Shown here: positions 6,367-37,893 of the stretch, piece by piece
Position numbering within the stretch: the stretch's first letter is position 1
How the letters are laid out: each line of letters begins with the position of its first letter
NCBI RefSeq assembly: GCF_000383515.1
Contig: NZ_KB911492.1
Span: 1 to 37,893, forward strand
Source: Mesomycoplasma hyorhinis ATCC 17981
GTDB lineage: Bacteria; Bacillota_I; Bacilli_A; Mycoplasmatales; Metamycoplasmataceae
Direction: 5' to 3'
Length of the DNA: 37,893 bases
Notes under the pieces: generated by a model
What the model was told of the DNA's origin: nothing
The model's input: the letters and a program-made list of their open reading frames with translations, nothing else
Database searches by the model: none
Position numbers and translations under genes: made by a program

Positions 6367-8196
6367 TTATTTGCTTGTAAATAGTTTTTTACCTAATTTT
6401 ATATATTCTTCAATATTTTTATTAAAAACAGCAAAAGCTTGTTGGTAAATCTTATCATCATCTAAATCCACTCCTGCGTCTTTTAAGATCAATGCAGGTC
6501 AATTAGATCCTCCAGCTGATAAGAATTTAGCAATATATTGTTCAAGAGCTTTGGTTCCTTGTTCTTTATATTTTTGAAAAAATACATTAGCTACGATAAA
6601 ACCAATTGCATATTTGTAAACATAATATCCATAATAAAAATGAGGAACAATTACTGAATAAATATTTTGTGGTTGATTAAGTTTGTGTTTTTGTTTATTT
6701 GTTTCATATTGGTTTAAAACATTAACATAAACTTTTTCCATTTCACTATAGGAGTTAATTGGAACCCCTTGATCTACTAGATTGTAAAGTTCGTATTCAA
6801 ATTGTGCTCATTGAGTTTGTTTAATTACTGTTTGGTAAAAATCTGAAATTGCTTCTTCTAAAAGACTAAATTTAACTTTATTGTCTTTAGTATTTGAAAT
6901 TACGTAATCATTTAACATCAATTCGTTAAAAATTGAAGCTATTTCAGCTAAAAAGATAGGATAACTAGCTTGGGCATACGGTAGTGATTTATCAGAATAA
7001 TATGAATGCATAGAATGTCCTAATTCATGAGCTAATGTTGAAACTGAATTAAAACTAAAATCAAAGTTCATTAAAATATATTTTTTATTTACTCCATATG
7101 TTCCACCAATTGAATAAGCGCCACTTACTTTGTTATTCACATTGTAATAATCAACTCATCTTTTTTCAAAGGCTTCTGTAACTACTTTTTTATACTCAGA
7201 ACCCAAAGGTGAAATTGCTTTTAAAACAAAATCTTGTGCTTCTTTTACTGTGTAGTTTTGTTTGATTTTGACCAATGGTACCAAATTATCTCAAGGTCTT
7301 AAATTTTTGTTGAATCTAGCTTTAAAAAAGCTTTTTTTCGCAGCTCTGAACTTATTTACTCCTTTTGCATTTGCTTGCACATTTTTAAAAAGTTTTTCTA
7401 ATAAAGATTTAGAAATTTTATCAGGATAAATGCAATACTCAACTAATGAAGGATAATTTCTAATTTTAGCTTCGGTAGATATTTTTTTAACATGTTGGTA
7501 CAAAAGTGAAGAATAAGTTTCTTTGTGAACTAAATATCCTTGTAAATAATTTTTATAAGCTTGTTCTCTGACATATTCGTCTTTGTTTTTTAACAATTTG
7601 CTATAAGTTGAAATAGTAAGTGGAAGAGATTTTTGTTGCCTTGTTTTTACTGATTTAAATTTAGTTTCAGAGTTGTTTAAAATTGAAAAAGTAGAATCTA
7701 ATTCAATGTTTCCAAAAGAAGTTTTAGATAAATACTCTTCTACTTCATCTGCTAATTTATGTTTTTTAGATTCAATTAAAAAATCAATTTTCTTTTTGTA
7801 AATTTTAACTTCTTCATTATCTTTTCAACTCATAACTTTGTCAATATTTTGAAAAAATAAATTTTCCACCGAACCTAATTGTGATTCAAATTGTGAAATT
7901 TTATAACTAAATTCACCAAAATATTTGTTAAAAAGCGGATCAACTAAATTGGTATTTAATTTATTAGAAATATAATTGTGTAATTTGTTTGTAAAAATAG
8001 AAAAATCTTCAAAAACTTTTGTGTATTCTAAAAAGTTTTTAGCTGAATCAAATTGAGTATCTTTTTTTGCTAATATTTGTTCTTTATAAATATCTATTTG
8101 CTTGAGATGTTCTTCAACTGATTTATTTTCTAGTAAATCTTCTAAATCAAAACGATATTTTAAAGGAATGTCTTCATATTTTTTATATGTTTTCAT
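6367..8196 (-). CDS. pepF: Oligoendopeptidase F, copy 1 (M3 family)
   Basis: This 609-aa cytoplasmic zinc metallopeptidase cleaves short peptides brought in by oligopeptide importers. It begins [21 protein letters not shown], has the zinc site [14 protein letters not shown] with HELGH at residues 390-394, and [14 protein letters not shown] about 25 residues later, which supplies the third (Glu) ligand in M3 peptidases. The tail has [20 protein letters not shown] and SAGGSN, typical of PepF. The reading needs TGA as Trp at several sites. It is a paralogue of the gene at 24234-26060, with HELGH at the same residue number. It lies downstream of the opp block on the same strand but behind a terminator, so it probably has its own promoter. 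Confidence 0.95.
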
Positions 8197-24233: not shown

Positions 24234-26060
24234 CTAATTTTTAAATAGTTTATTACCTAATTTTATATATTTTTCAACGTTATCTTCTAGTATACTAAAA
24301 GCTTGTTGATAAATTTTGGAATCTTCTAAATCTATTCCTGCATCTTTTAAAACTAAAGCAGGTCAATTAGATCCTCCAGCTGATAAGAATTTATCAATGT
24401 AATTTTGCAATTGTGCTTTTCCTTCTTTTTTGTACCTTTGAAAAAACACATTAGCAACGATATATCCTATAGCATATTTATATACATAATAACCATAATA
24501 AAAATGAGGAACAATTACTGAGTAAATATTGCTTTTATCACCTAATTTTACTTTGTTAGCTTCCATTTCATATTTATTCACTACATCAACGTAAACCTTT
24601 TCGATTTCTGTGTAAGAATTAACTGGTTGCCCTTTATCAATTAAATTGTACATTTCATATTCAAATTCAGCCCACTTTGTTTGTTTAATTACTACTTGAT
24701 AAAACTCTAAAATTGAATCTTCTAGTAATTTAAACTTAGTAAAGTCATTTTCTGATTGTTCAAAAGCTTTATCAACTAACATTAATTCATTAAAAATTGA
24801 AGCAATTTCAGCTAAAAAAATTGGATAACTAGCTAATGAATAAGGCAATCTTGTATCTGAAAAATATGAATGCATTGAATGTCCTAATTCATGAGCTAAA
24901 GTAGAAACTGAATTAAAAGTAAAATCATAATTCATTAAAATGTATTTTTTATCTAAACCATAAGAAGCACCAATTGAATAAGCTCCGCTTCTTTTATTGG
25001 CAACATTGTTGTAATCAACTCAACAATCTTTAAAAGCCTTTTTAATCATATCTGTGTATTCTGATCCCAAAGGCTTTAAAGATTCAAGAACTAAGTTTTG
25101 AGCTTCTTCAATGCTATAATTTTCTTTGATTTTAACCAACGAAACTTTATTATCTCAATCTTTCATTGGCTTATTAAACTTAAATTTAAAAAATTTGTTA
25201 CGAGCTTTTTTAAATTTATTGTAAATATTTGTATGATTTTGCACATTTTTAAATAAATTTTCTAACAAAGAAACACTAATCCGATCGGAAAATAAACAAT
25301 ATTCAATTAAAGAGTTAAAGTTTCTAGCTTTAGCATCCACGGATTGTTTTTTAATGTGTTGATATAATAAAGAAGAATAAGTTTCTTTATGCATTAAATA
25401 TGCATCTAAGTAATTATTGTAAGCTTGCTTTCTAATATCTTCATCTTTATTTTTCAAAAGTGTTGAAAGTGTAGCAATTGTTAAAGAATGCTTCTTATTT
25501 GAAGCAGAAATTACATCTTTGAACTTTGTTTCTGAATTATTTAAAACTGCAAAAGTTGAACTTAAAGAAACTTGACCAAAAGAAGTTTTAGTTAAATATT
25601 CTTCAACATCATCACTTAATCTATGTGCTTCAAAATCAAGATATTTTTGAATTTCTAATCTGTAATTTTTAACTCTTGGATCATTTTTATATTGATTAAT
25701 TAAATCTTTCTTAGCAAAAAAAAGATTTTGAATTGAACCCAAAGATGAATAAAAATTACTCATTTTAAACTTGTATTGACCAAAAAGTTTATTAGTTTCT
25801 GCATCAACTAAATTTGTATTTAGTTTATTTGAAATGTAATTTAAAACTTTATTATTATAAATTGCGAATTCTTCTGAAAGCTTTTGATAGGCTAAAAAAT
25901 TATCAACTGTATCAAATTGACTATCTTTTTTGGCAATTAGTTGTGAAATATACTCATCCATACCTGCTAATTTGTCTTCAATAGTACGACCTTCTAAAAG
26001 GAAGTCTAAATCAAATCTGTACTGTTTTGGAATGTCTGAATATTTTCTATAAGTTTTCAT
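24234..26060 (-). CDS. pepF: Oligoendopeptidase F, copy 2 (M3 family)
   Basis: This 608-aa zinc metallopeptidase is a paralogue of the protein at 6367-8196. It begins [21 protein letters not shown], with the zinc motif [14 protein letters not shown] (HELGH at residues 390-394) and [16 protein letters not shown]. The ending [20 protein letters not shown]...SAGGSN is almost identical to copy 1. It is encoded immediately before oppB on the same strand. Imported peptides would be hydrolysed in the cytoplasm by this enzyme. The upstream region carries a weak RBS (AGGA) 9 bases before ATG and faces efp divergently. Confidence 0.95.
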
Positions 26061-27127: not shown

Positions 27128-28967
27128 AAATATAGAAGAATTAGCAATTAATACTTTAAAAATGAACGGAGTTGCTGCTGTTAATCAAGCAAATTCAGGG
27201 CATCCTGGAATTGTTTTAAGTGCTGCTAATATTGTTCATACTTTATTTACTAGACATATGAATTTTGATCCACAAAATCCACAATGAATTAATAGAGATC
27301 GTTTTATTTTATCAGTTGGTCACGGATCTGCTTTATTATATTCACTATTAAGAGTAATTGGATTGATCTCTAAAGAAGATTTAAAACAATTTCGTCAATT
27401 AAACTCTAAAACTCCAGGGCATCCAGAATACAGACACACAAAAGGAGTAGAAGCAACAACAGGACCATTAGGTCAAGGAATTGCAATCGCTACTGGAGTT
27501 GCAATTGCTCAAGCTCATTTAGAAGTAAAATTTAAAGAAATTGATCACTACACTTATGTTTTATGTGGAGATGGTGATATTCAAGAAGGTGTAGCAAATG
27601 AAGCATTTTCATTAGCTGGACACTTAAGATTAAACAAATTAATTGTTTTATATGATTCAAATAATATTCAATTAGATACAAGAGTAGAAGCAACTTTTAC
27701 TGAAGATGTAAAAGAAAAAATGACTGCATTAGGATTTAATTATATCCTTGTGGAAAAAAATGAAGTTGATGCTATTGATCAAGCAATTACTAAAGCAAAA
27801 CAATCTAACTTACCTTCATTTATTGAAGTAAAAACAATAATTGGTGAAGGAGCTCCAAAAGCAAATACCTCAGAAGTGCACGGTGCACCATTAGGTAAAG
27901 ATATTGAAGTTTTAAAGCAAAATCTAAATTGAACTTATGATGAATTCGAACTACCTCAAGAAGTAAAAAAATTCTATGAAGATACATTGATTAAAAGATC
28001 TCAAAATGCTTTTAATAGCTTCAAAGTTTCCAAAGAACTCCAAAATTGAATTTTAGCTTCTGATAAAGAGCAAAAAATTGAAATTGATATTAAAGAAAAC
28101 ATTGCTACTAGAGCAAGTTCAGGTGCTGTTATAGAGCATTTAAACAAAAATCTTGAATCTTGAATAGGTGGTAGTGCTGATTTAAGTAGCTCAACTAAAG
28201 CAAAAGGTGCAGATGGAGATTTTTCTATAAAAAATAGAAAAGGAAGAAATATTCTATTTGGAGTTAGAGAGTTTGCAATGGCAGCAATTGCAAATGGACT
28301 TGCTCTTCACTCTCACTTTAAGCCTTTTGTTTCTACTTTCTTTGTTTTTGCTGATTATTTAAAACCAGCATTAAGACTTTCTTCTTTAATGCAGCTTCCT
28401 GTAACTTATATCTTTACTCACGATTCAGTTCAAGTTGGTGAAGATGGTCCAACACATGAACCAATTGAACAACTTGCTATGTTAAGATCTGTTCCTAATT
28501 TAAATGTTTTACGTCCTGCTGATGAAAAAGAAGTAAAAGCTTCATATGAAATTGCAATAAATTCTAAACTAACACCAACTGTTATTGTTTTAACTAGACA
28601 AAATATTACTTCTTTAGCAAACACAAATCAAGAAGAATTTAAAAAAGGAGCTTACCTTGTAAGAAAATCTAAATCTAAATTTGCAGTTATAGCTACTGGT
28701 TCAGAATTAGCTATTGCACAAGAAATTGCTAATGAATTAGATTTTAATTTAATTTCTTTATCTAATTGACAAAACACACCTATTTGAGATGCTTCTAAAG
28801 CGGTTTCTATTGAATTGGCTTCAACTTTTGGCTGAACAAAACACGCTAGTTTAAACATAGGAATTGATACATTTGGAATTTCTGCTCCAGTAAAAGATAT
28901 ACTAAAACAAATTGGCTTTGAAAAAGAAGCAATTATTAAAAAAATTAAAACTTTTGTAAACAAATAG
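27120..28967 (+). CDS. tkt: Transketolase
   Basis: This 615-aa thiamine diphosphate enzyme of the non-oxidative pentose phosphate pathway transfers two-carbon units between sugar phosphates. Visible features are [11 protein letters not shown] near residue 26, [13 protein letters not shown], the GATGPLGQG-type loop ([10 protein letters not shown]), the thiamine-binding motif GDGDIQEG with downstream NN, and the pyrimidine-domain sequence [17 protein letters not shown] followed by [20 protein letters not shown]. The C-terminus has [14 protein letters not shown]. Slightly shorter than bacterial enzymes (about 660 aa). Several TGA codons are Trp. The start at 27120 overlaps the small upstream gene. 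Confidence 0.96.
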
Positions 28968-29011
28968 TTTTTTAAATAAATAATAAAAAAAATATGAACA
29001 AAATTGTGAGC

Positions 29012-29049
29012 AGATCCCCTTTTTTTTAGAAAAATAGAAAAGGGGATCT
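29012..29049. terminator. Bidirectional terminator between tkt and lanKC-like gene
   Basis: AGATCCCCTTTT (29012-29023) pairs with AAAAGGGGATCT (29038-29049); this is one of the most GC-rich stretches in the local sequence. The TAG stop of the minus-strand lanKC-like gene (29048-29050) overlaps the stem, so it serves both genes. Confidence 0.88.
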
Positions 29050-30675
29050 ATCATTCTTTCAACATTTTTTTATTTTGTGAATTTTTATTTTTATTAAAAT
29101 CATTCAAAAGATAAAAACAATAAAAAATTAAACTTGATATTTTTAATTTATAGATATTTTTATAATGAACTTTTTTGTTTTCTGTATTTTCAAACTCTAA
29201 ATCATTAATAACAGAAAAAATCAATTTATGTTTTCAACTTTCGAATTTAAACTTAATTTTTGGATTTTTAGCTAAAATATTTTGCACTTTATTGATTATA
29301 TAATTTTCTGAAAACATTAAAAATGCTTCTTTTTTATAGCATTTTTGTTTAATTTTTTCTAATTTTTGTACAAAATTAACTTTTTCTGGATTTTTGTATA
29401 AAAGTAAATTAAGTGATTGAAAAATATAAGATTTTAAACCAAAAAACTTTGTAAATTTTCAAAACAACAACAAATCCAAAGAAAATAAATATTTATCTTT
29501 TTTAAAGTAAAAATGATTAAAAAAATGTTGTAATAGTACAATTGCTAACTTAAAATAATCTTTTTGAAAATGAGTTAATTTATTTGATTTATCAATTTGG
29601 AATAAATCTGTATCTAAAATAACATTATTTTTTAAATCAAATTTCTTTTTAAAATCTTCATTAGTGAAAAAAGAAAAATCATAATCTATAAAGTGAAATT
29701 TATTCTTGTTTGTTATAATGAAATTTCCTAAATTAATATCCTTTAAAATAATGTTATTTTTATGATGCAAATCAATTGTTTTTACCAAATTTATAATTAA
29801 ATTAAACAAAAATTTAGAATAATGTTCGTGATTAGTTAATGAATAAATTAGATTAGAATTTAATACATTTCCTAAATCTCTACCATTTATAAACTCTTTT
29901 ACAGTATAAAAAAGTTGTTTTCAAAAAATGATTCTATAAAAATAGATGGATTAATAATTTTTCAAAACTTTTGTTCACGTTTTCTTAAACTCACCAAAGC
30001 AACTTTTGAATCAAAATAAGTATAAATGTGAGTTTGTTTAACTGTTAGTGTTAGTAATTTATTTTCATTTTGTTTAGCACCTAAAAAAATAAATCCAGAA
30101 GTATTTTGATATATGTTATAGGGTAATCTATATTGTGAAAGTTTAGGTGAATCTTTTGGTTTTTCTGCAAAAACATCCTTTACAAATGAAGGTAAATAAA
30201 AATATGATTTACTTCTATCTGGTTCTTTTTTTCTGAGTAATGGGATTAACAAAATATGGTCTTTTGCTATGATTTGTTCCAAATCTATAAAAAATAATAG
30301 AATTTTTGTACTGCTTGTCTACTGAAATATTTAAGCCTTTATATTTTTTTAATAGTTGATACAAATTTTCGATATGTAGTTTAAAATCTTCTTCATTTTT
30401 TGGATAAATTGTAATTAATTTACCGTACATTTGCAAATCTAAACTTTTTGAAGAATAAATCTTGGCTAATTTATGGTTTTTAAATGCTTAAATTCTAAAA
30501 AATTATTTACACAATATGTGTAAATAATTTTTATAACTTTGTAGTAATCCCTTATTCTGGGAGCTATATGAATTTTTCAACCTTGAAATAGTAGCGGGTA
30601 ATTATGAAAAATTAAAAACTTAAAATTTTCATTTTTTGATACATTATAATTAACATTTGATGAAGAGACAACCAT
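29048..30675 (-). pseudogene. LanKC-like lanthipeptide synthetase (lyase + kinase), three frameshifts
   Basis: The conceptual product of about 540 aa matches the N-terminal part of class III/IV lanthipeptide synthetases. In order: QGWKIHIAP (residues 31-39), YGKLITIYP, KNSIIFYRFG and PDRSKSYFYLPSFV of the phosphothreonine/serine lyase region, then a kinase domain with TVKQ (ATP Lys), LRKREQKFW (helix C Glu), LKDINLGNFII (catalytic Asp and Asn) and HFIDYDFS (metal Asp). About 150 residues follow, without a recognisable LanC cyclase; full LanKC proteins are roughly 800-900 aa. The frame changes three times: at T5 30477-30481, T7 30226-30232 and A6 29908-29913 (plus-strand bases). Apart from these there is no stop other than the final TAG. 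The ATG lies 16 bases after a small Cys-peptide gene. It could be decayed, phase-off, frameshift-expressed or mis-sequenced. Confidence 0.75.
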
Positions 30676-30681
30676 AATTTA

Positions 30682-30687
30682 ATTATA
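30682..30687 (-). promoter_or_regulatory. Possible internal -10 box before the lanKC-like gene
   Basis: TATAAT on the minus strand lies 6 bases before the ATG at 30675 in the short gap after the Cys-peptide gene. There is no Shine-Dalgarno sequence for the synthetase gene, so a leaderless transcript from here is possible beside read-through from the peptide gene. Confidence 0.35.
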
Positions 30688-30691
30688 ATAA

Positions 30692-30862
30692 TTATTTTTT
30701 ATAAATAATTATTGTGCATTGATTTGTGTCAATTTTTTCAAGTTCATTTTGTTTTGCTGCTAAATTCATTTCTTTATAACTAGTGTTTAATTTATTAAAA
30801 TCTAAAGAATCCAAATTATTTAGTAAATTTGCGTTGAGTAAAATAGTTGATAAATTGTTCAT
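30692..30862 (-). CDS. Candidate RiPP precursor peptide (56 aa, one Cys)
   Basis: This 56-aa peptide directly precedes the LanKC-like gene on the same strand, with 16 bases between. It starts MNNLSTILL and contains an amphipathic segment LLNNLDSLDFNKL (residues 13-25), resembling the helical Leu-rich leaders of class III/IV lanthipeptides. The only Cys (Cys49) is near the end in KIDTNQCTIIIYKK, with Thr46 three residues before and Thr50 just after. A Thr46-Cys49 thioether ring would be sterically ordinary. No double-Gly or other obvious protease site is present. A GAAAG-type RBS and TATAAT lie upstream. It is too small to prove by sequence alone, but the position and composition favour a synthetase substrate. 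Confidence 0.65.
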   Translation of the reverse strand: MNNLSTILLNANLLNNLDSLDFNKLNTSYKEMNLAAKQNELEKIDTNQCTIIIYKK

Positions 30863-30884
30863 ATATACTTTCTATGTAAATTGA

Positions 30885-30890
30885 ATTATA
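30885..30890 (-). promoter_or_regulatory. -10 box of the peptide/synthetase operon
   Basis: A perfect TATAAT on the minus strand lies 22 bases upstream of the precursor ATG, leaving room for a short leader that contains AGAAAG as ribosome binding site. No convincing -35 box is visible, as is common in mycoplasmas. Confidence 0.55.
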
Positions 30891-31023
30891 TTAAAGTAAA
30901 ATGTAAAAAAATTTTAAAATACAAAACATTATTAAGTTAATTTTTACAATAAAATTTTACTCTTTTTTAAAAAAGACATAAATTTTACTATTTTAAAAAA
31001 TGGGTTATAAAAATTTTAGACTT

Positions 31024-31860
31024 TTATTTCATCCATCCCAGTCTGGATTTAAAATTATGTTTTTTGTTTAAATCTAAAACTAATGGAGTCAAGGTTACTA
31101 AACAAAAAGTATAAACAGGAAGTGTAATTGTAGATTTAAGAATTATTGGAGTTAAATAAAAAAAGAAATACTGTGAAATATATCTATCTTTTCCTGTTCT
31201 GTTTAAAAATCTATTGTAGTATCTAACAAATGCAATTGGATGTCAAAAATATCTAAAGACAACAAAAATAAATACTAAAATAACAAAAACTACAAATGCC
31301 AATCTTCATTTTCTATTATGTGTTTTATGATATAGAAACAATAATGTTCCACCAACAAAAAAAGCAAATGAATAAATCACAGCTAAAAGACCAATAATTA
31401 ATTGTTTATTAAAAATCCCTTTTCAGGATTTAGAAGTTCTTTGAATTTCTGAATCAGGCATTTTGAGGTAGTAAATTAAAACTACAGATGCAACTATAAA
31501 AGTAAGGACTGTTGGAAGAAGAAGTCAAATATCCCTTTTAGAATTTAACAAAAAGAGAAATCCTGATGCAATAATAGCAATAAGAGGAGGAATAATTCCA
31601 TACTCATATGCTCAAAGATGAATTTGTCCTTTAATTAATGCGTTCATAATATCAAATATAAAAGCAACAACAGCACCTTTAAATGTACCTAAAATAATTC
31701 CTAAAAATAAATAGAAAGGAATTTCAAAAGCTACATTAAACCTAGAAGGTAAATGTACTTTTAAAATAAACGTTAACGCTGAAAATATTGCTAATAAAAA
31801 ACCACTAATTACAATATCAAATGTTGAAAATAGGAAAAAAGTTTTTCAATTAATTTTCAT
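31024..31860 (-). CDS. ECF transporter substrate-binding (S) component
   Basis: This 278-aa integral membrane protein begins MKINWKTFFLFSTFDIVISG and has several hydrophobic spans. The stretch FEIPFYLFLGIILGTFKGAVVAFIFD (described here by its key parts: a Pro-containing span, then G-x-x-x-G-x-x-K-G and a final Asp) is typical of vitamin S components, where it forms the substrate pocket and energy-coupling contact. The C-terminal part (about residues 130-278) has more membrane spans and a positively charged tail ending GWMK. The family resembles FolT/RibU-like components, but the vitamin cannot be told. It must use EcfA/A'/T encoded elsewhere. AGAAGG precedes ATG. The frame needs many TGA(Trp) codons, so standard-code tools miss it. 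Confidence 0.78.
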
Positions 31861-32657: not shown

Positions 32658-32970
32658 TTATTTAGAAGTTTGTTTTTCTGTATTCTCTTCAAAGGTTTCT
32701 TCCAAATCTTCTAAATCTTCTTCAATATCTGATAATAATTTTTCAGTTTTAGGGATTATGTTTCTTGCTTTGGAAAGAGACTCTTTAACTTTAAATTTAG
32801 AATTTTTTACAAATTCAAAATCTTACTTTGAAAAATGAGATTGTTTCTTTGAATTAGATTTTAAAATTTGGATTTTAGTTTCATTATCTGGATCTGAAGA
32901 TTCTACATATCATTTGCCATCTTTTTTGTTTACACCTACATTTTGATGTATATAAAAATTCTTCGGACAT
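32658..32970 (-). pseudogene. Decayed small gene (frameshift and nonsense codon)
   Basis: A strong RBS (AGAGG) precedes ATG at 32970, and the first codons read MSEEF. A frameshift in a T5 run then moves to the frame encoding NVGVNKKDGKWYVESSDPDN, which after SHFSK meets an in-frame TAA; beyond it the same frame stays open and encodes a Glu/Lys-rich helical tail ending ENTEKQTSK. Repaired, it would give about 103 residues. The N-terminal KDGKWYVES part is reminiscent of small DUF2188-like proteins but this is weak. It faces rluA-type gene divergently. Confidence 0.6.
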
Positions 32971-33993: not shown

Positions 33994-34025
33994 AAAAAAA
34001 CTTACTAAAAATAGTAAGTTTTTAT
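33994..34025. terminator. Bidirectional terminator
   Basis: AAAAACTTACT pairs with AGTAAGTTTTT (34013-34023) across a short loop, followed by T-rich sequence. The minus-strand ABC gene ends inside it (TAA at 34022-34024). Confidence 0.85.
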
Positions 34026-35650
34026 TTATCTAAATAAATTATATAATCAAATGCTTGTTCTCTTTTGTTGTCATTATGATGTGAAATATAAATTAATGTA
34101 AGGTCTTGATCATTTAATAATAAATTTAGAGCAATTTCCAAATTTTCTTTATCAATGTTAGATAATCCTTCATCTATTATTAACACATCTTTTTTAAAAT
34201 ATAAATTTCTTGCTAACACTATTCTTTGCATTTGACCAGTTGAGACATCATTATCATCTTCTTGTCCTAAGATTTTATTTTTATCTATTGTTTGCAAATT
34301 TAATTTTTCAATTAGGTTATTTAGCTTGTTTTTATCAGAATTTTCTTCAAATAAAACAATATTATTTTCTATATTTGCTTCAAGTAAAAGCGAGTTATTT
34401 GCTAGATAGTTAAAGTGTTTGTTTATTCATTTAAAATCAATCTCTTTAACTTCATATTTAGCATTTAGTAAAACATTTCCATCATAGTTTTTCTCAAGAC
34501 CTAAAAGAATTCTGGCAAGCGTAAACTTACCTGAACCATTTGAACCTTTTATAATGTATTTTTTAGCTGGATATATAATTAAATTTTTATTGTTATACAA
34601 TGTTTTATCCTTTAATTTTAAAGAGAGATTTTTAATTAAAATGCTTGAAAATACTTCATTTTCTAAGTTAAATGCACTTACTGTAAGTGTTAAATTAAAT
34701 GGTGCAATATTTTGTGTATCTTGAATTTCTTTTTTGGCCTTTTTTACTTGAAGAAATTTTAAAATATCTTCAATTGTTTCATTTAGATGATCAAAAAAGT
34801 TATCTAACAAAGAACCAACAAATGCAATAATTGAAACTGATTTAATCAACTCAAATACATCATTTTTATGAACTAAACCAAAATAAACTATTATCACACC
34901 ACTTACAAAAAGTTTAAAAACTAAATTTAAATTTTCTGAAATTAAAGAAAAAAACTTAGAAGTTTTTAAATAATTATTGTAAACATTTAAATTTGCATCT
35001 AGTTTTTTTGCAAATAATTTATTAAGTTTTTCTTTTTTATTTAGAGTATACAACGCTGGTAAATAAGAAATGATACCTGTTATATTTTCATTAAATTTAT
35101 TTCAAGATTCTGTTTTTGCAATAAATGTTTTTTTTAATTTTGGCTTTATAAATAAAGAAAAATTAAAAAATAATACTAACAAAGCTACTATAGTAACTCC
35201 AAGAATTCACTTGGTATAAAACGCAAAAATTAAAATTGCAATTATATATAAAAGATTTTTCAAAATTTCAATTAATGCTAAATAATATTTTTCAATTCTT
35301 TCTCCAATGTTGTTTTTAATTTGTGAATAATAATAACCTTCAGAATTTTTGTTATATTCACTTAAATTAACCTTATCAAAAACCTTAATTGTTTTAGAAA
35401 CAAGTTTGAGTTTTAAAATATTTATAAAACCTGTAAAAACAGCATTATGATAACCTGTAAAAACAGCAGAAACTATAAAAGATAGAATTAGAATAAGTGA
35501 AGTAATAACAAGTTTTTGATAGTTATGTTCTTCTAGAAATGTAAACAAATAGTAAGGAGCAACTGTAATAACAAAAGATGTAATTAAATATTGTAAAACA
35601 TAAAAAATATTTCAAATATTAAATAAAAATAATTTTGATTTTGTACTCAT
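34022..35650 (-). CDS. ABC half-transporter 2 (membrane + ATPase), altered Walker A
   Basis: This 542-aa protein has an N-terminal membrane domain of about six spans (ALYTLN and long helices to residue ~300) and a C-terminal nucleotide-binding domain. Walker A is GSNGSGKFTL (residues 369-378): the Lys is kept, but the next Ser/Thr, which binds Mg, is Phe. The signature is VSTGQMQRIVLARN instead of LSGGQ, Walker B is VLIIDEGLSNID with the catalytic Glu, and the switch His is in YISHH. Domain order is that of exporters of the lantibiotic/bacteriocin or lipid type, without an N-terminal peptidase. It starts 12 bases after the preceding half-transporter with AGAAGGA as RBS, so both form one operon and probably a heterodimer. 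Confidence 0.87.
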
Positions 35651-35662
35651 TTTTCCTTCTTT

Positions 35663-37249
35663 TTATAGCCTAATTACCTCACCAAATTGCTCTAATATTT
35701 GTTCATTAAAATGATGACTAATAGCAATAATTGTTTTATCTTGTTGATTTAAAATGTTAGATCAAATAAGATTACTAAACTCTTTTTCTATATTATCTAG
35801 CGCTTCGTCTAAACACCAAATATCAAAGTTTCCATATTTTAATCTAGCTAAAATTATTCTTTGTTTTTCTCCTTCAGATAAAGAATCAGAAGTTACTTCA
35901 GTATCAAGTGATAATTTTTTAATTTTAAATTCATCTATTAGTGATTCCACTCTTTCTAGGTCTGGATTGTCATCTCACATAACTATGTTATTCAATAAAA
36001 TATCATTAAAAATTGTGTTTTGATTGTCAATTAATCCAATGTTTTTTAATGTATTTTTAGGATTTAATTCTTTTGTATCAACTTCATTATTTATCAAAAT
36101 TGTACCTTCGTAATTTGTTTCTAAATTAGCTATTAACTTTAAAAGTGTTGATTCTCCACTTCCTGAAGCTCCAACTATTGCATATTTTTTATTTTGCATA
36201 ATTTCAAGATTTAAATTTTGAAAAATGAAGTCATTTTCATTACTTTTATATGATAAATTATTTAATTTTATTGACTTAATTTTATCTATGTTTTCAACTT
36301 TAAAACTTGGTTGTTCGTGTGTTTCTAATATTTTTTTCAATGTTGGACCATATGTCATTAAAGGAAAAATTGAATTAAATAAAAGAGTAAAAGAAAAACT
36401 AATAATTATTAAATAAGAAAGCAAAAGAATAAAGCTTGATTTTCCTATGAAATTATTATAAATTAGTAAAGCAATTTCAACTATACTAATTCCAACAAAT
36501 AAAACTGAAATAAAATTTCCAAATGAATTTGCTCAATCTGTTTTTAGATTAAATTTAAATTTATTTGCATATATATTTTCAGTTTTTTTAAATATTAAAT
36601 TATTAAAAATATTAACTTTATTAAAGAAGTAAAATATAGAAAATAATGAAAAAGTTTTAACCTGTTTTTGAGCATATTCTTCATATTTTTGCATTAATAT
36701 TTGGAATTTATATTGAAATCTTGGAATAATTATTATAAAAAAGGCAAGAATTAAAAACTGTGAAAAAATTATTGTTAAAAACATTATTCAAGATCATTGA
36801 CTTAAAACAAATATAAAAACTAATGGTATTGTAAACGAAGAAATAAATTTAAATAAATAATCATGGAAAATCTCCAAAAGAAGCATTGTTGAATCTAAGT
36901 ATTCATTAAACAATGCAACGGTTTTATTTCTTTGTTTGCTAATTTGAGAAAAACTCTGATTAGATAAATTATCTATTATTTTTTCTTGAAGTAATTTATA
37001 TGTTTTTCTAGTAACAGATATCTTAAAAGCAGTTAAAATCCACTGAATTATTATAGATAAAACAAGTGAAAATAAACAAATTAATAATCAAATTAAAAAC
37101 TCATCAAATTTAATTTCATTTAAAAAATAATCAACAATATATTTGTATAAATATAAATTTAATGATAAAAATGCTACAAAGATATTTTGTAGCACAAAGA
37201 TAAAAATATTTTTGGTTTTATCAAATGATAAAATTTTTAAAATGCTCAT
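35663..37249 (-). CDS. ABC half-transporter 1 (membrane + ATPase), Walker A Lys replaced
   Basis: This 528-aa exporter-type subunit has membrane spans in the first 270 residues, for example FLTIIFSQFLILAFFIIII, and an ATPase domain. Walker A reads GASGSGESTL (residues 360-369): the invariant Lys is Glu366 (codon GAA), which should abolish ordinary ATP binding. The signature is LSEGEKQRIILARL, Walker B IWCLDEALDNIE and the switch His lies in AISHH. The frame is open throughout with TGA as Trp, so the gene is intact apart from this substitution. It is preceded by a 57-codon ORF whose stop is 10 bases before this ATG, and it leads into the second half-transporter. Confidence 0.87.
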
Positions 37250-37259
37250 AAATATCTTT

Positions 37260-37433
37260 CTATAAAATTTTCATTATATATTTTTGTACAAAAAATGTTA
37301 AAGTGATTTTTAAAATTTTTTGTTTTATCTTATCAATATTATCTTTGAGAACAATATTTTCCAAATTATCTACTTTATCTAAAAGTGAAATAAAAAAATT
37401 AGATAATTTATTATCATATAATGAAATTTTCAT
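37260..37433 (-). CDS. 57-aa peptide gene heading the ABC operon
   Basis: This 57-aa ORF starts MKISLYDNKLSNFF and has one of the best ribosome binding sites in the window (AAGGAG, 9 bases before ATG). It encodes a Lys/Ile/Leu-rich, probably helical peptide with the central NLENIVLKDNIDKIKQKI and no Cys, no Trp and no signal peptide. The TAG is 10 bases before the ABC start. A role as substrate, immunity or leader peptide of the transporter pair is possible; nothing in the sequence decides between these. It is intact and probably translated. Confidence 0.55.
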   Translation of the reverse strand: MKISLYDNKLSNFFISLLDKVDNLENIVLKDNIDKIKQKILKITLTFFVQKYIMKIL

Positions 37434-37472
37434 ATATTATTTCTCCTTTCTTTCATATAAGAAAATTTTACT

Positions 37473-37514
37473 TTTCTTTCTTTCTTTCTTTCTTTCTTTT
37501 TTTTTTTTTTTTTT
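37473..37514 (-). repeat. (GAAA)6-A18 simple-sequence tract upstream of the ABC operon
   Basis: On the plus strand this is (TTTC)6 at 37473-37496 followed by T18 at 37497-37514. It lies 40-81 bases upstream of the 57-aa gene, between the ABC operon and a 5'-truncated hsdS. Such tracts change length by slipped-strand mispairing. In mycoplasmas, GAA-type repeats upstream of a promoter are known to switch genes on and off (for example vlhA in M. gallisepticum). On the minus strand TAAAAT (plus 37464-37469) adjoins it as a possible -10 box. Confidence 0.85.
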
Positions 37515-37523
37515 AAGAAATAA

Positions 37524-37893
37524 AAAGATTCTTTTACACTCACTTGACAACAGTGTAAGGTTGGAGAGTTGTTTGAATTAGATGGAGGAGGATTTGTTTC
37601 TAAATATGAAATTCAAAATAATCCTGGCAAGTATCCTGTTTATTCATCGCAAACCACCAATAATGGAACAATGGGTTATATAAGTTCATATAAATATGAT
37701 TTAGAATGTTTAACTTGAACCACCAGAGATTATGCTGGTGTAGTGTTTTATAGAAACGAAAAATTCAGTGTTTCTAATTCTGGTTTATTAATTTTTAAAA
37801 GAAACATAATTTACAATTATCGATATTTTTTATTTGTTTTTCAAATGGCAGATATTCAAAAATCAATGACTGCAGGGAACATTCCACAATTTA
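37524..37893 (+). pseudogene. hsdS: Type I restriction specificity subunit HsdS, 5'-truncated and cut by window end
   Basis: The frame from 37524 encodes FTLTWQQCKVGELFELD followed by GKYPVYSSQTTNNGTMG, LTWTTRDYAGVVFYR and SVSNSGLLIFKR, then MADIQKSMTAGNIPQF. This is the usual start of an HsdS target-recognition domain (TDD-W-x-x-R-K-L-G-E-like). There is an in-frame TAA immediately upstream (37521-37523) and no start codon before GEL, so the normal 15-20 leading residues are missing. The break lies next to the T18 tract. It may be a silent specificity cassette that recombines with an expressed hsdS elsewhere, or a remnant. TGA codons are Trp. The 3' end is outside the window. Confidence 0.75.

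What the first reader, a model, noticed from the sequence alone, without database searches (positions are those of the whole stretch)
29908..30481. Synthetase is split by three frameshifts, each at a 5-7 base A/T run
Shifts occur at T5 30477-30481 (minus-strand reading CAT TTA AAA ACC, a T-TTA-AAA heptamer of the X-XXY-YYZ slippery type; shift -1), T7 30226-30232 (shift +1) and A6 29908-29913 (shift -1). The remaining coding sequence is well conserved, with all kinase residues and no other stop, which suggests recent or reversible inactivation. Alternatives are phase variation by slipped strands, ribosomal frameshifting, or base-calling errors in homopolymers. Against general errors: the neighbouring 8.3-kb gene is unbroken.
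Basis: seen in the sequence. Interest (0 to 1): 0.72.

Follow-up and report, generated by a model that had tools for sequence, protein, structure and literature searches.

The report
Decayed mycoplasma lanthipeptide synthetase gene
A mycoplasma carries a recently broken gene for an enzyme that makes ring-shaped (lanthipeptide) peptides; related mycoplasmas still have uninterrupted copies with matching peptide and export genes, which is an unexpected trait for such small, wall-less bacteria.

Summary
Three single-base length differences, each in the A/T run named, split one minus-strand coding sequence (code 4) into four open pieces. The gene is a class III lanthipeptide synthetase (LanKC: lyase, kinase, cyclase). 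A sister species (G013) has the uninterrupted ortholog (734 codons stop to stop). Compared with it, the window lacks about 3.7 kb next to the remnant: the 3' end of the gene (cyclase part) and two downstream ABC exporter genes. The two exporters that remain nearby have Walker A substitutions absent in G013, and one candidate peptide gene has no cysteine. So this is a young pseudogene in a decaying pathway. A reversible switch, ribosomal frameshifting and general sequencing error are all poorly supported. 'Recent' fits (dN/dS 0.07-0.20, like intact neighbours); 'reversible' does not. The wider result is more interesting: LanKC-type genes occur in 25 of 320 genomes of the order, uninterrupted in 17, broken in 7, cut off by a contig end in 1. 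They are usually followed by ABC exporters and preceded by a small ORF with a C-terminal T-x-x-C motif. I found no paper describing lanthipeptides of mycoplasmas in seven searches of an open-licence library.

The parts
30469..30675 (-). LanKC remnant, piece A: N-terminus and first half of lyase domain
   Evidence: Open under code 4 from an ATG; 78% identical to G013 LanKC residues 54-107; RamC_N match E 4.7e-6 at 30472-30651
30218..30487 (-). LanKC remnant, piece B: second half of lyase domain
   Evidence: Pfam RamC_N E 1.3e-13, NCBIfam class III LanKC E 6e-13; 87% identical to G013 residues 107-192
29902..30318 (-). LanKC remnant, piece C: lyase-kinase linker and kinase N-lobe
   Evidence: 82% identical to G013 residues 186-295; no family match alone
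29051..29950 (-). LanKC remnant, piece D: kinase domain and start of the C-terminal region; truncated
   Evidence: NCBIfam LanKC E 7.7e-7, Pkinase E 0.0013, below its cut-off; 84% identical to G013 residues 295-580
30477..30481 (.). A/T run at break 1
30226..30232 (.). A/T run at break 2
29908..29913 (.). A/T run at break 3
28999..29054 (.). Junction: G013 has about 3.7 kb here (LanKC 3' end and two ABC exporter genes) that the window lacks
   Evidence: Homology with G013 ends at 29054 and resumes at 28999; the G013 LanKC C-terminus has 0 matches in the own genome
30695..30862 (-). Small ORF upstream of the remnant, candidate precursor peptide (56 aa, contains T-N-Q-C)
   Evidence: Position and T-x-x-C as in relatives; no sequence relative beyond weak matches in 15 genomes of the genus; inferred
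34022..35650 (-). ABC exporter 2, Walker A reads GSNGSGKF
   Evidence: ABC_tran E 1.5e-20; G013 counterpart reads GSNGSGKS
35663..37249 (-). ABC exporter 1, Walker A reads GASGSGES
   Evidence: ABC_tran E 2.6e-23; G013 counterpart reads GESGTGKS
37263..37433 (-). Small ORF before ABC exporter 1; aligns with a G013 peptide ending in TILC plus a short tail; here no cysteine
   Evidence: 48% identity over 50 residues; alignment

Best explanation
The locus is a young pseudogene of a class III lanthipeptide synthetase (LanKC). In uninterrupted relatives the enzyme should phosphorylate Ser/Thr of a small precursor peptide (kinase), remove the phosphate (lyase) and close thioether rings to Cys (cyclase); the product would leave through ABC exporters encoded next door. 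In this genome the gene has three frame breaks by slippage in A/T runs, and its 3' end with two exporter genes has been lost, so no complete enzyme can be made. Shown: the breaks, the missing segment, the uninterrupted ortholog, the family and the retained active-site residues. Inferred: enzyme activity in relatives, the precursor role of the small ORFs, and that the loss is final.
For: Breaks confirmed by alignment with G013; 3' end and exporter pair absent inside a contig; no match elsewhere in the genome for the G013 LanKC C-terminus, for an ortholog of the first missing exporter (best match 42% identical, which is ABC exporter 1) or for a LanC-type cyclase; Walker A changes in both remaining exporters against G013; a neighbouring small gene is broken too. 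Family: 15 of 15 uninterrupted relatives match RamC_N and the class III LanKC model, and the best solved structures are LanKC (E 2e-86). 7 of 25 order genomes with the gene have it broken, so loss is recurrent.
Against: The dN/dS of the pieces is no higher than in neighbours, so there is no sign of long relaxed evolution; that test averages both lineages and has little power. The candidate peptide 30695-30862 is still open. No reads and no second strain were available.
Confidence: 0.92

Rival explanations
1. Phase variation: the gene is switched off and on by slipped-strand changes in its A/T runs.
For: Breaks lie in A/T runs, and the rest of the sequence is well conserved. Six further loci have a single break each.
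Against: Three separate runs would have to change together and the 3' end would still be missing. Runs at the breaks are 5-7 bases, no longer than in uninterrupted relatives (up to 9). No break position is common to all broken relatives.
Confidence: 0.03
2. Sequencing or assembly error in homopolymers; the gene is intact in the cell.
For: All breaks are one-base differences in A/T runs; the assembly has 24 contigs.
Against: 0 of 465 runs of 5 or more are off in 22 other window genes against 3 of 52 here, p 0.001. Errors would not remove about 3.7 kb within a contig.
Confidence: 0.04
3. Programmed ribosomal frameshifting makes a continuous protein.
For: A T TTA AAA heptamer lies at break 1 in the right frame.
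Against: Such heptamers occur once per 58 codons here (177 in 10,264 codons of 19 genes) and four times in piece A alone. No notable downstream fold (z -0.96), none at breaks 2 and 3, and no excess in six other broken loci: 4 of 6 have one where about 3.3 are expected from the rates printed. The sister species needs no shift.
Confidence: 0.01

Closest known systems
Class III lanthipeptide synthetase LanKC (ThurKC; solved chains 8sao, 8sam)
   Same: Lyase then kinase order. ThurKC lyase residues Lys65, His67, Lys94, Lys117, Asp152 and Arg163 (passages read in PMC10604976) line up with residues invariant in 15 of 15 uninterrupted mycoplasma relatives and kept in pieces A and B. That the chain 8sao is ThurKC is my reading of the entry names and numbering.
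   Different: The window copy is broken and lacks its C-terminal part. In G013 the protein is shorter (734 codons in all, against 859 residues in 8sao_B), and LANC_like is detected in only 4 of 15.
Class IV LanL
   Same: Same lyase-kinase plan; 15 of 15 match NF038150.
   Different: Lower score than for class III in the member shown (100.6 against 174.1 bits). Zinc-ligand cysteines, which define LanL cyclases (recalled), were not seen in the aligned C-terminal region, though no formal residue test was run.
Mbov_0121 family ABC transporters (NF045998)
   Same: Best NCBIfam match of both window exporters.
   Different: Scores 110-135 bits against a cut-off of 500; the matches start at profile positions 145 and 148, so the N-terminal peptidase part is absent.
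VenL-like phosphothreonine lyase domains in mollicutes (PMC4159009, passage read)
   Same: That 2014 paper lists mollicutes among classes with VenL-like lyase domains.
   Different: The passage gives no gene cluster, precursor peptide or mycoplasma species.

Membership tests
Class III lanthipeptide synthetase (LanKC) | N-terminal phospho-Ser/Thr lyase domain with its catalytic residues | tested here: met
   RamC_N in piece B and, weaker, piece A; residues kept
Class III lanthipeptide synthetase (LanKC) | Central Ser/Thr kinase domain with Lys, Asp, Asn, Asp | tested here: met
   Residues kept in pieces C and D; LanKC E 7.7e-7, Pkinase E 0.0013 under its curated cut-off
Class III lanthipeptide synthetase (LanKC) | C-terminal LanC-like cyclase domain | tested here: not met
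   Absent from the window copy and the own genome; present in weakened form in relatives (LANC_like 4 of 15). The window copy is therefore filed as a remnant of a member.
Class III lanthipeptide synthetase (LanKC) | One continuous reading frame | tested here: not met
   Three breaks
Class III lanthipeptide synthetase (LanKC) | Whole-protein score over the NCBIfam NF038151 cut-off (575 bits) | tested here: not met
   Pieces 48.1 and 27.9 bits; even the uninterrupted G013 protein gives 174.1 bits
Lanthipeptide gene cluster | Precursor peptide gene with Ser/Thr and Cys in the core | tested here: inconclusive
   Small T-x-x-C ORF upstream of 15 of 21 LanKC genes against 8 of 214 other genes; the window ORF has TNQC but no confirmed relatives
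Lanthipeptide gene cluster | Thioether product | not testable with these tools
   Needs mass spectrometry
Phase-variable gene | Run length varies between clones or strains | not testable with these tools
   One genome per species, no reads

The most novel reading that the evidence does not exclude
Mycoplasmas of at least three families carry a compact class III lanthipeptide system (LanKC, ABC exporters, and a 34-80 residue peptide with a hydrophobic T-x-x-C core). Having no cell wall, the producers might be naturally safe from products that act on wall precursors of competitors. The system is lost repeatedly, and this window shows a lineage in the middle of losing it.
Probability: 0.55. Interest if true: 0.75.

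Novelty: new member of a known kind. Interest (0 to 1): 0.5.

Why it matters
Reduced genomes of host-bound, wall-less bacteria are not where one expects peptide natural-product pathways. The remnant leads to 17 uninterrupted genes of the family, many with candidate precursors and exporters beside them, so the question whether mycoplasmas make modified peptides, and for what, becomes directly testable. As a pseudogene alone the finding is ordinary.

Tried and rejected
Reversible switch, ribosomal frameshift and sequencing error were tested and set aside. Rfam over 28900-31100 gave nothing. A relative of the window peptide 30695-30862 was sought in 15 genomes of the genus; besides itself only matches with E 0.015 or worse. 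The idea that lyase and kinase are encoded as two overlapping genes in some relatives (breaks near the domain border in G136a, G152 and G037) was considered; the second frames show no ATG near their start (seen by eye), so I did not adopt it. In six single-break loci the frame change has the same sign; with six loci this is weak and fits a bias in small length changes. The first scan of genome contigs found no relative; the second listed 80 of 175 relatives, of which one is a mollicute (Mycoplasmoides fastidiosum, L054). The tree gives no clean single mycoplasma clade: 2 changes at the least, one origin not ruled out.

Rows left out: alignment A2 holds 15 of 17 uninterrupted proteins (near-copies G158 and G077 left out). 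The upstream-ORF count used LanKC genes of 21 of 25 genomes; G000, G037, G136 and G283 were not in the LanKC set, and G283's LanKC frame was counted among 'other genes' in the 600-base variant. Of its 15 hits, those of G134 and G057 are doubtful by eye. The tree used 26 of the 79 non-mollicute loci and no broken mycoplasma copy except the first frame of M. fastidiosum. In one search only the 22 loci in the list were annotated.

Full report
What was reported and what is there. The window comes from a genome of 806,507 bases in 24 contigs whose genes read through TGA as tryptophan. On the minus strand between 30675 and 29051 four open pieces follow each other in different frames. Aligned with an uninterrupted ortholog from a sister species (G013, same genus), the remnant is 86.1% identical over 1613 bases. 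It has uncompensated one-base length differences near 30483, 30235 and 29912; other gaps are in frame or cancel each other.

Family. Piece B matches Pfam RamC_N (E 1.3e-13) and the class III LanKC model (E 6e-13); piece D matches the LanKC kinase part (E 7.7e-7) and, weakly, Pkinase (E 0.0013). Piece C alone matches no family but is 82% identical to G013. Uninterrupted mycoplasma relatives match RamC_N and NF038151 in 15 of 15 cases, Pkinase in 7 and LANC_like in 4. A profile of them finds LanKC crystal structures first (E 2e-86). Six lyase residues tested by mutation in ThurKC (passages of PMC10604976) line up with invariant columns and are kept in pieces A and B. The kinase Lys, Asp, Asn and Asp are kept in pieces C and D. 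Neither the pieces nor the uninterrupted G013 protein (174.1 bits) reach the NF038151 cut-off of 575 bits, so this branch is divergent.

In G013 the gene is open over 734 codons and is followed by two ABC exporter genes and then transketolase. In the window, homology to G013 stops at 29054 and resumes at 28999, so about 3.7 kb is absent: the 3' end of the gene and both exporters. The G013 LanKC C-terminus has no match in the window's genome, the best match to the first missing exporter is the 42%-identical exporter at 35666-37240, and no LanC-type cyclase is found. The order of the surrounding shared genes is otherwise kept. Direction of change is inferred: full-length genes in 17 genomes make loss in the window more likely than gain in G013.

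Further decay. Two exporters 3.3 kb away are shared with G013 (71-73% identical). Their Walker A motifs read GASGSGES and GSNGSGKF in the window, while the G013 counterparts and the two further G013 exporters all have GKS. A small ORF before exporter 1 (37433-37263) aligns with a G013 peptide that carries TILC near its end, but has no cysteine. A nearby small gene (about 32658-32970) is broken by a frame change and a stop against a 127-codon G013 ORF.

Age. dN/dS against G013 is 0.10, 0.07, 0.15 and 0.20 for pieces A-D, and 0.03-0.20 for 12 neighbouring genes. Inactivation is therefore recent compared with the split, although this test averages both lineages.

Alternatives. General error: 0 of 465 A/T runs of 5 or more are off in 22 unbroken window genes, 3 of 52 in the remnant (p 0.001). 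Frameshifting: heptamers of the slippery type occur once per 58 codons in 19 unbroken genes and four times in piece A, no notable fold follows, and there is no excess in other broken loci. Switching: runs at the breaks are not longer than in uninterrupted relatives, no break position is common to all broken genes, and the 3' end would still be missing.

The wider system. RamC_N occurs in 25 of 320 genomes of the order, in 9 of 50 genera and three families. The gene is uninterrupted in 17, broken in 7 (G000, G037, G092, G104, G136 with two copies, G152, and G283, which is Mycoplasmoides fastidiosum) and cut by a contig end in 1 (G096). An ABC exporter frame lies within 6.5 kb in 20 of 22 loci looked at, mostly directly downstream; in the other two, G096 and G104, the gene lies at a contig end. 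Within 260 bases upstream, a small ORF with [ST]-x-x-C in its last 22 residues precedes 15 of 21 LanKC genes and 8 of 214 other genes (p 1e-13). With the stricter T-hydrophobic-hydrophobic-C the counts are 11 of 21 and 2 of 214, and both of those two lie before ABC exporters of LanKC clusters. Some LanKC genes, such as that of G003, had no such ORF nearby. In a tree with 26 other bacterial LanKC the 18 mycoplasma rows cluster (2 changes, against 14.2 in shuffles), but one origin is neither shown nor excluded.

Literature. Seven searches of an open-licence library (listings read) showed no paper on lanthipeptides of mycoplasmas. A passage of PMC4159009 mentions VenL-like lyase domains in mollicutes. 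A word search of PMC7268733, a survey of over 100,000 genomes, found no mention of Mollicutes, Mycoplasma or Tenericutes. Most subscription papers are not held, so this is not proof of absence.

Verdict. The locus is a young pseudogene of a class III lanthipeptide synthetase, with lesions that slippage alone cannot reverse. On its own it is ordinary; as a pointer to an apparently undescribed set of mycoplasma lanthipeptide clusters it is worth following.

Noticed in passing
window 32658-32970 (-): Small gene broken by a frame change and an in-frame stop compared with a 127-codon ORF of G013.
   Followed up: partly
window 37470-37520 and 37524-37892: A CTTT repeat followed by a long T run stands before an hsdS-like piece; G013 has several hsdS-like copies and fragments around the same cluster, a possible shuffling locus. 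The name hsdS is recalled, not from a family search.
   Followed up: no
L030:2012-2107 (-) (G013:C1:399018-399155): A second, short fragment of a LanKC lyase domain in G013, a remnant of another copy.
   Followed up: no
L040, L047, L028, L029, L048, L054: Other mycoplasma LanKC genes with a single frame break each, in Mycoplasmoides fastidiosum too; true loss, switching or assembly error cannot be told apart here.
   Followed up: partly
L037 and L038: Repeated 410-429 aa ORFs that look like insertion elements lie between or beside LanKC and its exporters.
   Followed up: no
window 6367-8196 and 24234-26060: Two pepF-like peptidase genes (name recalled) flank the opp-like cluster; both match a single gene in the G013 stretch, at 64% and 85% identity.
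   Followed up: no
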